From Acinetobacter sp. SAAs474 (lineage in GTDB: Bacteria; Pseudomonadota; Gammaproteobacteria; Pseudomonadales; Moraxellaceae), in contig NZ_CP127915.1 of assembly GCF_032823475.1 (NCBI RefSeq), positions 310,001-374,000 on the forward strand: a stretch of DNA of 64,000 nucleotides, written 5' to 3'. Positions 37,576 through 42,724 of the stretch are shown one piece after another (position 1 is the stretch's first letter; every line of letters begins with the position of its first letter). The translations under genes and the position numbers were made by a program. A model generated the notes under the pieces. The model saw nothing but the letters and a program-made list of their open reading frames with translations, did not search any database and was not told the origin of the DNA.

Positions 37576-38460
37576 TTAAACCCAGAACTGCCATAATGCG
37601 CCATAAAATAAAATCACAATTACACTGGCAATCGTGCCTGATGCAATGATTTTAGCAGAAGATCCAGTCCCTCGATAATGCGTTTCTAAAGCAACAATAT
37701 TGGCTGCTGGTGGTAAACAAAAAAACATCATCATCACAGCATAGGTCAATAGTTCATGAGGAATTGGCAATAAAAAATAAGCCATTAGACACAGTAGCAT
37801 TGCAGCCCAGAGGCGATGACCGATCAACTTTAAACTCTGTTGTAAATCTGACCATGTCACAGCAACATGACTCAACCACATCCCCAAAATACACATGCCC
37901 GAAAAAGTAACTAAAATTTTATCAAGTTGATAGATGGCTTGAATTATGGGATGTGTTTCCAATGATGCTAAAGAATAAAATGACAATAAACCTGCTAACA
38001 TTAAAGCAATGATCGGGGGAGATTGTAGAATATTTTTACTGATGTTCGTCACAGACTGCTGATGTTCACTTAATGCGATCACAGCACATACATTACCAAA
38101 TACTGACCCACCAATATATAAAGCCACAATGATACTACTGGCCTCTGCACCAAAGACCACTAATGCCAATGGAAAACCCAACCATGCACCATTTAAGTAA
38201 CTAAAACATAACGCATTTAATTTATCTTTTTGCAAATAATAAAAAATACTAAATAGTAGGATCGAGCTTAAAAAACTAAATCCAATCAACCATAAACGAC
38301 CTGGTTGATAAAATACCATGTTGTAAACAATGATGACTGGAATAAAGAGACGGGCCAATAAACTCGAGAGTAATTTTTTTAAATAACTGCTCGCATCACT
38401 ATATTTTCTAGCCAGCACAATCCCGCATAGAAATGCACAAAATGGCAGGATTAAGCCCAT
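37576..38460 (-). CDS. AEC family transporter (auxin efflux carrier-like)
   Basis: A 294-aa integral membrane protein with about ten hydrophobic segments in two repeats of five. Recognisable segments include FSYLNGAWLGFPLALVVFGAE with the conserved asparagine-glycine turn and CLPPAANIVALETHYRG near the C-terminus. AEC carriers export or take up organic acids and amino-acid-like anions; the substrate cannot be predicted. The ATG at 38460 has GGA 8 bases upstream; the in-frame TTG at 38472 is less likely. It is divergent from tatABC, and the Pho box between them lies 84 bases from its start. Confidence 0.86.
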   Translation of the reverse strand: MGLILPFCAFLCGIVLARKYSDASSYLKKLLSSLLARLFIPVIIVYNMVFYQPGRLWLIGFSFLSSILLFSIFYYLQKDKLNALCFSYLNGAWLGFPLALVVFGAEASSIIVALYIGGSVFGNVCAVIALSEHQQSVTNISKNILQSPPIIALMLAGLLSFYSLASLETHPIIQAIYQLDKILVTFSGMCILGMWLSHVAVTWSDLQQSLKLIGHRLWAAMLLCLMAYFLLPIPHELLTYAVMMMFFCLPPAANIVALETHYRGTGSSAKIIASGTIASVIVILFYGALWQFWV

Positions 38461-38543
38461 AATAATATCCAATTAATTTCATGCTGTTATGGTATCACTG
38501 CTGCAGTAATCGACCCATCATTCTTCTTTAATTGTTCAAAAAA

Positions 38544-38561
38544 CTGTCATCGGAATGTCAT
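38544..38561 (+). promoter_or_regulatory. Pho box upstream of tatABC
   Basis: CTGTCAT-CGGA-ATGTCAT has the 7-4-7 direct-repeat layout (11-base period) of PhoB sites, with one mismatch to the CTGTCAT half-site consensus. It ends 48 bases before tatA, and a GAGATAAA -10-like stretch lies about 11 bases past it. It implies activation in phosphate starvation. Confidence 0.65.
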
Positions 38562-38609
38562 AGAGAACTGATGAGATAAACACATCATTTAATCTATGAG
38601 TAACTGGAT

Positions 38610-38828
38610 ATGGCAGGTTTATCGATTTGGCATGTTGTAATTTTTGCAATTGTTGTCATTTTACTTTTTGGTACCTCAAAATTAAAAAATCTTGGTAAAG
38701 ATGTGGGTGGCGCAGTTAAGGATTTTAAAAAATCAATCAAAGATGAAAATACTGAACCGCCTCAACTGCAAGATGCTCGTATTATTCAAGCTGATGTTAA
38801 AAATACTGACAGTACCATAAAAAGTTAA
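38610..38828 (+). CDS. tatA: Sec-independent protein translocase subunit TatA
   Basis: TatA forms the pore part of the twin-arginine translocon, which moves folded proteins across the inner membrane. The 72-aa protein has the N-terminal membrane helix [20 protein letters not shown], then the [26 protein letters not shown] hinge and amphipathic helix (split here at about residue 20), and an acidic tail. It is followed by tatB after 12 bases. A good Pho box lies upstream. Members of this size are standard for TatA. Confidence 0.96.
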
Positions 38829-38840
38829 AAGTGATTATTT

Positions 38841-39302
38841 ATGCTGAATATAGGAATGACCGAACTCTTGGTCTTTGGCATTATTGCATTATTAATTTTA
38901 GGCCCAGATAAGCTGCCAGAAGCAGCACGCTTTATGGGGAAGTGGTACAGTAAAATTAAACGCACCATTAATAATGTTCATCAAGATATTGACCGTGAAT
39001 TACGTTTATCGGAATTACGTGCACAAATGCAACAAGAAATGCAGCGTATTCAGGCCTTAGAAGTAAAAATGCAGAATCAGCTCAATGCGTTGGAGCATCA
39101 CCAACGACTTGATGAACCAGAGGTTAAGGTGCATCAAACATATCATTTTATTGCACAATCACCCAATTATGTCTTTCGCCCGTATGGTCGGCAACTGGCT
39201 TTATCTTGTCGTGCTATTAATAGTACGACAGCACAACAGATCAATCATCAGCATTTTAGTTCCCATGATTTAAACAATAAAAACTATCAGGTTGCACTAT
39301 GA
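38841..39302 (+). CDS. tatB: Sec-independent protein translocase subunit TatB
   Basis: TatB works with TatC in the receptor complex that binds twin-arginine signal peptides. The 153-aa protein begins MLNIGMTELLVFGIIALLIL, carries the GPDKLPEAARFMGKW hinge that distinguishes TatB from TatA, and continues as a long charged amphipathic helix with coiled-coil character (about residues 40-95). The C-terminal 60 residues are low in conserved features. The tatC start codon overlaps its stop by 4 bases. Confidence 0.95.
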   Translation: MLNIGMTELLVFGIIALLILGPDKLPEAARFMGKWYSKIKRTINNVHQDIDRELRLSELRAQMQQEMQRIQALEVKMQNQLNALEHHQRLDEPEVKVHQTYHFIAQSPNYVFRPYGRQLALSCRAINSTTAQQINHQHFSSHDLNNKNYQVAL

Positions 39303-40087
39303 ATCCTATTGTTCCCTCATCAATGACACCTGAAGCACAGCAAACAACGACTGAAACTTTAGCAGAAATGCCTATCACCAAACATTTGGTGATTCTTCGT
39401 CGCTATCTTTTTCGTAGTGTCGGTGTATTGTTAGTGCTATTTTTTTGCTTATTACCTTTTGCCAATCAAAGTTATCAAATGCTTTCTGAACCCCTGAGAG
39501 CGCAACTCCCATTGAGTTCAACCATGATTGCAACCGATGTCACTGCAACATTCATGGCACCATTTAAACTTAATTTTTTTCTGGCGCTGACTTTAGCAAT
39601 GCCCTATTTGATTTATCAAGTTTGGTCATTTGTTAAGCCGGCCTTATATCAGAAGGAACGATCTTTGGCACTGCCTTTATTATTGGGTAGTATCAGCTTA
39701 TTTTATCTTGGTATTAGCTTTGCTTACTATATTGCATTACCGTCGATTTTACATTTTTTCATTAGTGTCTCACCTGAAACGGTTGCGCCAATGACGGATA
39801 TTAATAGTTATTTAACATTCTGTTTAAAGCTTTTTTTGGTTTTTGGTTTAACCTTTGAAATTCCAATTATCACCTTATTATTAATTTTAATTGGTGTTGT
39901 AACAACAGAACAGTTGATCGAAAAACGACGTTTTGTTGTAGTTGGCTGTTTTTTTGTCGCGATGTTTGTGACACCACCAGATGCATTATCTATGATTATG
40001 CTGGCAATTCCTATGTGGATTTTATTTGAAATCGGATTATTGTCGGCAAAACTGATTGAAAAACGTCAAACAAAGCAAGAGGCATAG
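39299..40087 (+). CDS. tatC: Sec-independent protein translocase subunit TatC
   Basis: TatC is the multi-spanning receptor for twin-arginine signal peptides. The 262-aa protein has six membrane segments. Visible family motifs are MPITKHLVILRRYLFRSV at the cytoplasmic N-terminus, ALTLAMPYLIYQVWSFVKPAL, the FELPI-like stretch FEIPIITLLLILIGVV, and FVTPPDALSMIMLAIPMW. The ATG at 39299 overlaps the tatB stop (ATGA). The next gene on the strand, after a 435-base gap, encodes a Tat substrate (PhoX). Confidence 0.96.
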   Translation: MNPIVPSSMTPEAQQTTTETLAEMPITKHLVILRRYLFRSVGVLLVLFFCLLPFANQSYQMLSEPLRAQLPLSSTMIATDVTATFMAPFKLNFFLALTLAMPYLIYQVWSFVKPALYQKERSLALPLLLGSISLFYLGISFAYYIALPSILHFFISVSPETVAPMTDINSYLTFCLKLFLVFGLTFEIPIITLLLILIGVVTTEQLIEKRRFVVVGCFFVAMFVTPPDALSMIMLAIPMWILFEIGLLSAKLIEKRQTKQEA

Positions 40088-40114
40088 CGACATCATTTTA
40101 ATCTCAGCTATACC

Positions 40115-40173
40115 CACGATTGCATCATGATTGTTCGAATCAACTATCATCATGATGCAATATCATAATCGTG
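40115..40173 (+). terminator. Long hairpin after tatC
   Basis: A perfect 13-base core (ATTGCATCATGAT with its complement) is extended by CACG/CGTG across an 8-base bulge. No T run follows, so it may be an RNA 3' end stabiliser rather than an intrinsic terminator. Confidence 0.5.
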
Positions 40174-40301
40174 CAATTTACCGCCATAGCGTTTAAAAAA
40201 AATGCGATTCCCCAACAATATACTTGGCTAAAAACAAGCAATATTTCACTCAATCTCTACTTTGATTTTATTCAGTAAATACAACTATTTATTGTACCTC
40301 T

Positions 40302-40348
40302 AAGAATGAGTGGAGATTTAATCTGTTCTGGATTAAATCGCCATTCTT
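40302..40348 (+). terminator. Second hairpin upstream of phoX
   Basis: GATTTAATC and GATTAAATC pair around TGTTCTG, with outer AAGAATG/CATTCTT arms joined by small internal loops, then TATTG. It could be a terminator or part of a structured leader. Confidence 0.45.
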
Positions 40349-40522
40349 ATTGATTAAAAATGCTTTGATGCCCATCACAACAATAAACATTTTTTAAGCG
40401 AAAAAATCCCAGACCATCTGAATAATTCATCATGATCAGCTTTAATCACATTGCAATATTAACTTCAAAAGCTTGTCATATTTAACGTCTATTTTGAGGG
40501 TAACTTTTTAAACCCAGCATAG

Positions 40523-42724
40523 ATGCGCACTGTTAATATGATGAATAAACCTTATAACGAAGCTCAAGAACTTGACAATAATACGTCAGATAATATTCAT
40601 TTTCGTGACATTCTTAGTCAACGGATGACTCGCCGTAGCCTAATTAAAAAAACAGCCAGTGGCGTTGCTGCATTGGCATTGGCCTCCACTTTGACTGGCT
40701 GTAATGATGACGACGATTCCTCATCTGGGAACGAACAAAATCCAACACCTCCCATCAAAGACCCCAATCAAAAACCAACTAAATTAAGCTTTAATCCTGT
40801 TGCAAAAAATTTAAATGATATCGTCACTGTACCTGAAGGCTATCAAGCGACTGTATTGTATGCGATGGGTGATTCAATTCATCCAGACTATCCTGCATGG
40901 GATGATAATCAGGTGCCGAATGGCGCAAGCTTTCAGTTCCGTTCAGGGGATTGTCATGATGGCATGAGCTTTTTTGGTCTGAATAGCAATACAGGTCGTT
41001 ATGATCCGCAACAATCAGAACATGGTTTACTGGTGATGAACCATGAATATATTAATCCAACCTTTCTTCATCCCCAAGGCCCGACTAAGATCAATGGTCG
41101 ACGTCCCGAAGATGAAGTGATACGTGAAGTCAATGCTCATGGTGTTTCAATTATTCAAATTAAAAAAAATACCAATACGCAAGCTGTCGAATTAGTTAAA
41201 AATTCACCTTTTAATCGTCGTATTACTGGTTCTACAGTGATGGATTTTAAAGGTCCTGCTGCTGGATCCGCATTACTCAGTACGAAATATTCTCCTACAG
41301 CGAAACAAACACGTGGTACACATAATAACTGCGGTAATGGCTACACGCCTTGGGGAACGTATCTCACGACAGAAGAAAACTTTATTGGTTATTTTGCACG
41401 TCATCAAAATGATAATAGTAAACGCTCACCACAAGAAATTGTGGCTTTAAATCGTTATGGTCTAAAAGAGGGTGCCAATTCTCGTTATGGTTGGGAAACT
41501 GCTGAAGGACGTATTGATCTACAGGATTCATATGATCGCTGGCTTGCCAATGTCTCAGCACAAACTGCAGCAGAAGACTATCGTAATGGTCCAAATACAT
41601 TTGGCTGGATTGTAGAAATCGATCCATTTGATAGTCGTCAAAATCCTGTAAAACGAACCGCATTAGGACGTTTTGCTCATGAAGATTGTCGTGCCAGCCG
41701 TTTACGCGAAGATGATCATTTAGCCTTTTATATGGGAGATGATTCACGCGGTGAATATATTTATAAATTTGTCTCAGATCAAAAATGGGATAATCGTGAT
41801 ATCAATGGTGGCTATACTGTTGGCGATAAGTATATGAATAATGGCAAGCTTTATGTTGCAAAATTCCATAATGATGGCCAAGGTCAATGGATTGAACTCA
41901 GCTATGGTAAAAATGGACTGAATGAAAGTAATAGCGTTTATCCGTTTAGTTCCCAAGCCGATGTGGTTACATTTGCACGCCTAGCAGCAGATGCCGTCGG
42001 AGCGACGAAAATGGATCGACCTGAATGGGTTGCTGTCAATCCTGAAAATGGTGAAGTGTATGTAACCTTAACCAACAATTCTAATCGCGGTAGTAATGCG
42101 CAGCCACTAGATGCTGCTAACCCACGTTACTATGTTGATCCTGAAGGAGGTAAGGGTAATGTCAATGGTCATATTATTCGCTTCCGTGAACAGGGTGATA
42201 CGACAACAGCGGAAAACTTTAGCTGGGATATTTATTTATTTGGAGCTGAAGCCGCAATGGCCAGCAATATTAATCTCTCAGGTTTAAGCGATAATAATGA
42301 CTTATCTTCTCCAGATGGCATGTGGTTTGATCCACGTGGCGTGCTTTGGATTCAAACCGATGATGGTGCATATACCGATGTAACCAATTGTATGATGCTG
42401 GCAGCATTACCTGGTCAAGTGGGTGATGGTAATACAGCCATTACCTCTGCGGGTCAGCAAACCATTGTCGGTGCACAGGTCAATGATGAAAATTTAAGAC
42501 GCTTTTTAACAGGTCCTAAAGAATGTGAAATTACAGGTGTTACCATGACGCCAGATTATAAAGCGATCTTTATTAATGTGCAGCATCCAGGTGAAGATTC
42601 CAAGTCTTATGCCCAACCAAGCAGTCATTGGCCAGCATCACAAACCGATGCAAATGCGACCTCACGACCACGTTCGGCCACTGTGGTTATTACGCGCCAA
42701 GATGGCGGTGTCATTGCAGGTTAA
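40523..42724 (+). CDS. phoX: PhoX-type phosphatase, Tat-exported lipoprotein
   Basis: A 733-aa DUF839/PhoX family protein. PhoX enzymes are Ca/Fe alkaline phosphatases that free phosphate from organic esters outside the cytoplasm. A twin-arginine signal is clear (TRRSLIK at 36-42, then a hydrophobic stretch), followed by the lipobox LTGC with Cys60 and a DDDD-SSS-rich tether. The protein should therefore be a Tat-exported lipoprotein. Family motifs include VMNHEYINP, GTHNNCGNGYTPWGTYLTTEEN, HEDC in FAHEDCRASR, and SPDGMWFDPRGVLWIQTDDG. It follows tatABC on the same strand. No ribosome site decides between ATG 40523 and the ATGs at 40538 and 40541. Confidence 0.9.
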   Translation: MRTVNMMNKPYNEAQELDNNTSDNIHFRDILSQRMTRRSLIKKTASGVAALALASTLTGCNDDDDSSSGNEQNPTPPIKDPNQKPTKLSFNPVAKNLNDIVTVPEGYQATVLYAMGDSIHPDYPAWDDNQVPNGASFQFRSGDCHDGMSFFGLNSNTGRYDPQQSEHGLLVMNHEYINPTFLHPQGPTKINGRRPEDEVIREVNAHGVSIIQIKKNTNTQAVELVKNSPFNRRITGSTVMDFKGPAAGSALLSTKYSPTAKQTRGTHNNCGNGYTPWGTYLTTEENFIGYFARHQNDNSKRSPQEIVALNRYGLKEGANSRYGWETAEGRIDLQDSYDRWLANVSAQTAAEDYRNGPNTFGWIVEIDPFDSRQNPVKRTALGRFAHEDCRASRLREDDHLAFYMGDDSRGEYIYKFVSDQKWDNRDINGGYTVGDKYMNNGKLYVAKFHNDGQGQWIELSYGKNGLNESNSVYPFSSQADVVTFARLAADAVGATKMDRPEWVAVNPENGEVYVTLTNNSNRGSNAQPLDAANPRYYVDPEGGKGNVNGHIIRFREQGDTTTAENFSWDIYLFGAEAAMASNINLSGLSDNNDLSSPDGMWFDPRGVLWIQTDDGAYTDVTNCMMLAALPGQVGDGNTAITSAGQQTIVGAQVNDENLRRFLTGPKECEITGVTMTPDYKAIFINVQHPGEDSKSYAQPSSHWPASQTDANATSRPRSATVVITRQDGGVIAG

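What the first reader, a model, noticed from the sequence alone, without database searches (positions are those of the whole stretch)
38544..42724. Pho box on tatABC with a Tat-exported PhoX downstream: a phosphate-starvation export module
CTGTCAT-CGGA-ATGTCAT has the exact repeat geometry of a PhoB site and stands 48 bases before tatA. The next gene after tatC encodes a phosphatase with a clear twin-arginine signal. PhoX needs Tat because it is exported folded with its metals. The layout suggests that phosphate starvation raises the general translocon along with its main new cargo, which would make Tat capacity phosphate-dependent in this organism.
Basis: partly seen in the sequence, partly recalled or inferred. 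Interest (0 to 1): 0.7.

Follow-up and report, generated by a model that had tools for sequence, protein, structure and literature searches.

The report
Phosphate switch on Tat export genes
In Acinetobacter bacteria the genes for the machine that exports folded proteins carry a strongly conserved phosphate-starvation promoter, as does the neighbouring gene for an exported phosphatase, so the cell probably builds more exporter just when it makes this cargo.

Summary
CTGTCAT-CGGA-ATGTCAT lies at 38544-38561, 48 bases before tatA, and is one of only two sites within one mismatch of the E. coli Pho consensus in the 3.5 Mb genome. It belongs to a 56-bp block: four half-sites 11 bp apart, exactly 10 bp, then an extended -10. 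The block stands at 88 of 92 distinct tatA starts of the genus; the four without it are second tat copies. A profile trained only on relatives' tatA promoters finds in this genome tatA, the phoX promoter, a lipoprotein gene's upstream region and pstS as its best four hits. So tatABC carries the element of the textbook PhoB target pstS. phoX has its own such promoter. The tatC-adjacent slot holds one of two divergent Tat-signal PhoX families. A published A. baumannii RNA-seq study reports TAT-dependent export among genes raised by phosphate limitation. Bacillus subtilis has a Pho-controlled dedicated Tat pair; here the genome's only tatC is involved. Expression in this species was not measured, and in A. 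baumannii tatABC also follows growth phase, so 'phosphate-inducible' is safer than 'phosphate-dependent'.

The parts
38522..38561 (+). four 7-bp half-sites of period 11: TCTTCTT (38522, weak), TGTTCAA (38533, weak), CTGTCAT (38544), ATGTCAT (38555) = tandem Pho boxes of the tatA promoter
   Evidence: best hit of profile R1 in the genome covers 38541-38577
38562..38577 (+). 10-bp spacer ending in TG-A and extended -10 TGAGAT (38572-38577)
   Evidence: TG and the T that opens the -10 are kept at all 88 tatA starts that have the block
38610..38828 (+). tatA
   Evidence: Pfam PF02416 E=2.4e-12, NCBIfam TIGR01411 above cut-off
38841..39302 (+). tatB
   Evidence: NCBIfam TIGR01410 above cut-off
39299..40087 (+). 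tatC, the only tatC match in the genome
   Evidence: Pfam PF00902 E=1.1e-62; single match in G000
40440..40495 (+). phoX Pho-type promoter: CTTTAAT, TTGCAAT, ACTTCAA, TTGTCAT at period 11, 10 bp, -10 TATTTT
   Evidence: second hit of R1 in the genome, E=0.0065, 40450-40485; no sigma-70-type promoter or terminator found by the consensus scan of 40080-40540
40523..42724 (+). phoX, alkaline phosphatase with twin-arginine signal (R37 R38) and lipobox LTGC (57-60); true start may be a few codons in
   Evidence: Pfam PF05787 E=1e-138; PDB PhoX 3zwu E=2.3e-112; TIGR01409; lipobox read by eye

Best explanation
tatABC, the only Tat translocon found in this Acinetobacter genome, is a direct member of the PhoB (Pho) regulon. 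In low phosphate, phosphorylated PhoB binds tandem 11-bp direct repeats that take the place of the -35 element, 10 bp before an extended -10, and raises tatABC transcription; the adjacent phoX is raised in parallel from its own promoter of the same build. More translocon is therefore available when folded, metal-loaded PhoX (and, in relatives, the PhoX-like paralogue and Tat-signal phospholipases C) must be exported. Shown here: the sequence element, its geometry, its conservation and its identity with the pstS and phoX promoters. Inferred: PhoB binding, induction, and the benefit to export.
For: Block at 88 of 92 distinct tatA starts, per-column identity periodic at 11 bp, 5' flank at background. 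Pairs of TGTCA-like cores occur at spacing 11 in 86 of 92 upstreams, against 1 to 5 of 92 at spacings 6-10, 12 and 13, and 10, 10 and 35 at spacings 14, 15 and 16. Profile R1, built from 47 relatives' tatA promoters without this genome's own, ranks in this genome tatA (E .002), the phoX promoter (.0065), a lipoprotein upstream region (.044) and pstS (.24) (pstS read). In 7 other Acinetobacter genomes tatA is the best R1 hit in 7 of 7 (partly training data); of 42 further hits I read 20, among them four Tat-signal phospholipase C genes (two pieces confirmed by Pfam). Four of four second tat copies lack the block while the main copy of the same species has it. In the five genomes where tatC is followed by other genes, the PhoX-family gene elsewhere carries the element too, E 2.7e-4 to 0.075. 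One PhoB above cut-off with an E. coli-like DNA-binding domain. Published: TAT-dependent export raised in A. baumannii at 50 uM phosphate (PMC11828411, section 8).
Against: No expression or binding data for this species. The box count alone is close to chance. This genome's own R1 score is modest (20 bits, against 49-63 at tatA in the 7 relatives searched), since its two upstream half-sites are degenerate, and pstS reaches only E 0.24. The two classic PhoX genes of L164 and L165, whose tat contigs end early, gave no R1 hit. The RNA-seq sentence may mean Tat cargo rather than tat genes; its gene table could not be opened. In A. baumannii ABC141 tatABC is 4.4-9.6-fold higher in exponential than in stationary LB culture, so phosphate is not its only input. 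E. coli PhoB ChIP-seq lists no tat promoter among 65 regions.
Confidence: 0.88

Rival explanations
1. The block is a constitutive promoter with TTGTCA as -35 and a -10 about 16-17 bp further on; the resemblance to Pho boxes is incidental.
For: TTGTCA/CTGTCA is a fair -35, and in some species a TATATA-like stretch lies about 16 bp later (read); tatABC is expressed in rich medium in A. baumannii.
Against: Conservation covers three further half-sites upstream at period 11 and an extended -10 exactly 10 bp after the last, which a -35/-10 pair does not need; the same profile finds pstS and phoX and phospholipase C promoters in relatives. The two readings can both hold: a weak basal promoter plus PhoB activation.
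Confidence: 0.07
2. The element binds another OmpR-family regulator with a similar repeat, not PhoB.
For: Several PhoB-like regulators exist in the genome: 22 matches to the PhoB model, one above cut-off.
Against: Two of the profile's best four targets in the genome besides tatA are phosphate genes (phoX, pstS), and the one PhoB above cut-off has a DNA-binding domain very like that of E. coli PhoB (1gxp, E 3.2e-44).
Confidence: 0.04
3. The box serves phoX through read-through from tatABC, and Tat induction is a by-product.
For: No terminator-like site between tatC and phoX; a PhoX-family gene is next in 67 of 80 named loci.
Against: phoX has its own promoter of the same kind, and the tatA block is kept in the five species whose sequenced flank shows other genes after tatC (L047, L065, L071, L075, L082).
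Confidence: 0.08

Closest known systems
Bacillus subtilis phoD-tatAd-tatCd (Pho-controlled dedicated Tat translocase; PMC3068169, passages read)
   Same: Tat genes beside a Tat-exported phosphate-scavenging enzyme, all induced by phosphate starvation
   Different: There a dedicated second translocase beside the constitutive TatAyCy; here the only tatC of the genome, a different enzyme family (PhoX, not PhoD), a PhoB-type box, separate promoters, Gram-negative
A. baumannii phosphate-limitation response (PMC11828411, section 8 and passages read)
   Same: TAT-dependent export and phospholipases reported among raised genes; Pho box given as CTGTCATNNNNCTGTCAT and predicted upstream of olsB
   Different: The main text holds none of the words tatA, tatC, phoX; the authors suggest transport of lipids or membrane proteins
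PhoX with Tat dependence in Campylobacter jejuni (PMC3197622, passages read)
   Same: PhoX export needs Tat; tatC and phoX mutants share phosphate defects
   Different: No co-regulation or linkage of tat with phoX in the passages I saw
Pseudomonas putida 'TatADG' in the Pho proteome (PMC5082522, passages read)
   Same: Genes called tat next to phoX rise in low phosphate and are absent in the Pho mutant
   Different: The table labels two of these products General secretion pathway K and G, that is type II secretion names, not the twin-arginine translocon (my reading)

Membership tests
PhoB-activated (Pho-box) promoter | direct repeat of 7-bp half-sites spaced by 4 bp, near CTGTCATNNNNCTGTCAT | tested here: met
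   13 of 14 positions at 38544-38561; consensus as given in PMC11828411
PhoB-activated (Pho-box) promoter | box replaces the -35, with fixed short spacing to the -10 | tested here: met
   exactly 10 bp to TGAGAT with extended -10 TG, kept at 88 of 92 tatA starts; PhoB sites overlap the -35 (PMC3348028 passages) and strict spacing is needed (PMC10294691 passage); that the spacing is 10 bp in E. coli is recalled
PhoB-activated (Pho-box) promoter | same element as known Pho genes of the same genome | tested here: met
   R1 finds pstS (E 0.24) and phoX (E 0.0065) among its best four hits; phoB upstream has TTGTAATAAGCCTGTCAT
PhoB-activated (Pho-box) promoter | PhoB binds it and transcription rises in low phosphate only with PhoB | not testable with these tools
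   no expression or binding data for this species; published statement for A. baumannii only
Tat translocase (TatABC) | TatA, TatB and TatC all present with open frames | tested here: met
PhoX alkaline phosphatase | full-length PhoX domain and similarity to solved PhoX | tested here: met
   profile positions 2-515 of 515; 3zwu over residues 88-732
PhoX alkaline phosphatase | twin-arginine signal | tested here: met
   TRRSLIKK, TIGR01409 above cut-off
PhoX alkaline phosphatase | phosphatase activity and Tat-dependent export | not tested
   needs the bench

The most novel reading that the evidence does not exclude
In Acinetobacter and a sister genus the whole general Tat system, not a dedicated copy, has been captured by the Pho regulon: phosphate supply sets total Tat capacity, so unrelated Tat proteins follow phosphate status, and translocon and phosphate-scavenging cargo keep a shared promoter type even when the genes come apart.
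Probability: 0.7. Interest if true: 0.6.

Novelty: new variant of a known kind. Interest (0 to 1): 0.52.

Why it matters
Tat is usually treated as a constitutive housekeeping exporter. Here a nutrient regulator appears to control the sole translocon together with its cargo across a whole genus that includes important pathogens. It offers a simple explanation for a published but unexplained rise of TAT-dependent export in phosphate-limited A. baumannii and makes it directly testable with one promoter fusion.

Tried and rejected
Counting box matches alone: not enriched over shuffles at three mismatches and near composition expectation for the relaxed pattern, so I did not rest the case on it. 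A box belonging to the divergent upstream gene (37576-38472, minus strand): rejected, because the block points towards tatA and its 5' flank is unconserved between species. The third relaxed site (2718578) lies inside the start of an AraC-like ORF; treated as chance or unexplained. R1's weaker own-genome hits (ranks 5-8, E 0.5-8.5) were not used as evidence. Other families of the order: R1 found nothing at E of 1 or less in 17 loci, and the best half-site pair before tatA scored 10 of 12 at most (16 of the 17 had a tatA hit); several of these pairs look like coding sequence of hisE, a reading from memory. Within the family, 28 loci gave five weak R1 hits. P. putida 'tat' genes as precedent: set aside as type II secretion labels. 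The 2015 Pho regulon review PMC4415409 holds none of the six terms searched, twin-arginine, tatA and phoX among them. Literature searches for a link of tatABC and Pho in Acinetobacter: no listed title or abstract start states it; the lists showed only part of the matches (20 of 25; 20 of 189; 15 of 21; 4 of 5), and most subscription papers are not held. My notebook entry wrongly says Tat is up in stationary phase in PMC12687288; one search shows the reverse, and the report uses that.
Full report
What is there. The window is G000:C9:310001-374000 of a 3.52 Mb genome. The named records nearest to it by TatC are Acinetobacter, two of the 80 being labelled only Moraxellaceae. tatA, tatB and tatC follow one another at 38610-40087, and phoX lies at 40523-42724. 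The genome has a single tatC match and a single PhoX match. PhoX matches solved PhoX (3zwu) over residues 88-732, carries a twin-arginine motif, and has a lipobox LTGC at residues 57-60, so it is probably a Tat-exported lipoprotein (read from the sequence).

The box. As a bare pattern it is not remarkable by count (11 found, 10.67 expected at three mismatches; three relaxed matches genome-wide, none to the reversed control, about two expected from base composition by my own estimate). Against the E. coli consensus, however, only two sites in the genome lie within one mismatch, and tatA is one (with up to two mismatches 28 sites, 15 for the reversed control). Of the three relaxed matches one is tatA, one stands 48 bp before a PiT phosphate permease, and one lies inside the start of an AraC-like ORF.

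Conservation. I took tatA upstream regions from 30 unnamed loci (this genome and 29 of the same genus) and from 78 of 80 named loci (two, L066 and L076, do not include the tatA start): 108 upstreams, 92 distinct. 88 of the 92 have the block (87 placed by the script; L102 re-placed by hand). It is roughly TTGTCTT-NAAA-cTGcAAT-ATAA-nNGTCAC-NNNN-tTGTCAT, then 10 bp, then an extended -10 (TG-N-TgAgAT). The last two cores both have at least 4 of 5 TGTCA letters in 86 of 92; L027 and L099 are weaker at the third half-site and have TATAGT as -10. Pairs of such cores occur at spacing 11 in 86 of 92 upstreams, against 1-5 of 92 at spacings 6-10 and 12-13 and 10, 10 and 35 at spacings 14, 15 and 16. The 20 columns 5' of the block have 25-34% pairwise identity, while many within it are above 90%. 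The four without the block (L044, L085, L087, L096) are second tat copies of A. guillouiae (two), A. towneri and A. chengduensis; the main copies of these species (L064, L039, L103) have it. With the profile R1, 74 of 78 named loci with a tatA start score, the same four being the misses; much of this is training data, so it shows completeness and is not an independent test.

Independent test. R1 is a sequence-only model of 47 tatA promoters of relatives, chosen from 85 after leaving out this genome's own, L014, L102 and the four without the block. Searched against the own genome it gives eight hits at E of 10 or less: tatA (0.002), the region before phoX (0.0065), the region before a small lipoprotein ORF (0.044), pstS (0.24; gene read, promoter: GCGTCAT-ATTG-TTGTAAT-CTCA-TTGTCAT, 10 bp, CAAAAT), and four weaker ones. 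A model that knew only tatA promoters thus returned the classic PhoB target and the neighbouring phosphatase among its best four. In seven other genomes of the genus (49 matches at E of 0.5 or less) tatA is first in 7 of 7. I read the downstream ORF for 20 of the other 42: four Tat-signal phospholipase C proteins (two pieces tested, both PF04185), four porins (one piece tested, PF13609), five copies of a 72-87-residue unknown protein, three substrate-binding lipoproteins, one PiT-like membrane protein and two other lipoproteins (names from memory where Pfam was silent), and one unconvincing.

phoX has its own promoter. In the window, half-sites CTTTAAT, TTGCAAT, ACTTCAA, TTGTCAT run at period 11 from 40440, then 10 bp, then TATTTT at 40490-40495; the box ends 43 bases before the first ATG. 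In the 80 named loci R1 finds a site between tatC and the PhoX-coding part in 33 of the 67 that have a PhoX-family ORF there (18 of 46 classic, 15 of 21 divergent; E of 0.14 or less; in seven the mechanical ORF start lies ahead of the site). The other 34 gave none at E of 1 or less.

The neighbour slot. Of 80 named loci, 67 have a PhoX-family ORF as the next ORF of 150 residues or more after tatC: 46 classic PhoX (56-84% identical to the window's) and 21 a divergent paralogue (60-100% identical to that of A. baylyi L094); all 67 have an RR within the first 90 residues. Nine of the 21 were tested by Pfam, all PF05787 at 3e-17 to 2e-21. A. nosocomialis L088 and L090 have both in a row. The other 13: four second copies; three contigs that end soon after tatC (L048, L072, L084); L060, where other genes stand in between; and five (L047, L065, L071, L075, L082) where tatC is followed by other genes. 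These five keep the tatA block. Nine of nine genomes tested among the last three groups have a PhoX-family gene somewhere (eleven genes), and R1 finds a site on nine of the eleven loci, weakly on three; this includes five of five genes of the five species just named. The two classic PhoX genes L164 and L165 gave no hit. So translocon and cargo tend to keep a shared promoter type even when unlinked.

Wider relatives. Outside the family, 17 loci from other families of the order gave no R1 hit. In 28 loci of the same family, R1 gave five weak hits, but three of three loci of the genus nearest to Acinetobacter (g31: L206, L207, L208; a fourth g31 genome had no tatC match) have a PhoX-family gene after tatC and TATTCAC-NNNN-(T/C)TGTCAT, 10 bp, TAATTT starting 75 bp before tatA, with a hisI-like gene (named from memory) still upstream. 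Three of five loci examined of genus g30 (L218, L219, L220; not L217 or L231) have CTTTCAC-CTTT-TTGTCA(T/C), 10 bp, TATAAT starting 148-182 bp before tatA, with no PhoX found nearby. The Pho link may thus be older than Acinetobacter; this is a lead.

Regulator. One match to the PhoB model is above cut-off, of 22 in all, followed by a kinase that looks like PhoR (read, no profile run). Its DNA-binding domain aligns to E. coli PhoB (1gxp) at E 3.2e-44. The phoB upstream region has TTGTAATAAGCCTGTCAT.

Published evidence. PMC11828411 (section 8 and passages read): A. baumannii ATCC 17978, 50 uM against 1 mM phosphate, 67 genes up at 3-fold; [quoted passage not shown] The words tatA, tatC and phoX do not occur in its main text; its supplementary table was not open to me. 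PMC12687288 (passages): tatABC is 4.4-9.6-fold higher in exponential than stationary LB culture, and a tatABC deletion grows normally; no word beginning with phosphat occurs. This shows another input and counts against phosphate as sole control. A deletion primer printed there ends within the last half-site and spacer of the block as it reads in L021, so A. baumannii ABC141 carries at least that part. PMC3068169 (passages): B. subtilis phoD, tatAd and tatCd are induced by phosphate starvation. PMC10294691 (section 6 part 1 and passages): no tat promoter among 65 E. coli PhoB regions; PhoB-activated promoters are said to need strict spacing.

Mechanism and judgement. Shown: the element, its geometry, conservation, and identity with pstS and phoX promoters. 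Inferred: PhoB binding, induction in this species, and that more translocon helps export. It is a new variant of a known kind: B. subtilis has a dedicated Pho-controlled Tat pair, while here the general translocon itself seems drawn into the regulon.

Noticed in passing
L088:5936-10317, L094:5931-7916 and 19 other named loci: A divergent PhoX-family paralogue (about 21% identical to the window's PhoX) with its own Tat signal replaces or joins PhoX after tatC; function untested.
   Followed up: partly
L182, L190, L191, L192, L200 (loci of G016, G004, G008, G011, G007): A 72-87-residue protein of unknown function stands behind a tandem Pho-like block in five of seven genomes searched with R1; no Pfam match for the one tested.
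   Followed up: no
L044, L085, L087, L096: Some Acinetobacter carry second tatABC copies without the Pho block; their cargo and control are unknown.
   Followed up: no
L124:2351-2367 (G000:C9:1451350-1451366): A relaxed-pattern Pho box stands 48 bp before a PiT (usually low-affinity, recalled) phosphate permease.
   Followed up: partly
L218, L219, L220: Same-family genus g30 has a Pho-like pair, 10 bp and a perfect TATAAT 148-182 bp before tatA without any PhoX found nearby (three of five g30 loci): the Pho link may predate the phoX neighbourhood.
   Followed up: partly
window 40119-40161: Perfect 13-bp inverted repeat (ATTGCATCATGAT / ATCATGATGCAAT, 17 bp apart) between tatC and phoX, without a T-run (read by eye).
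   Followed up: no
L159:3544-3576 (G000:C9:2535543-2535575, minus strand): Three half-sites of period 11 before a small lipoprotein ORF, third-best R1 hit in the genome: a possible unnamed Pho gene.
   Followed up: no
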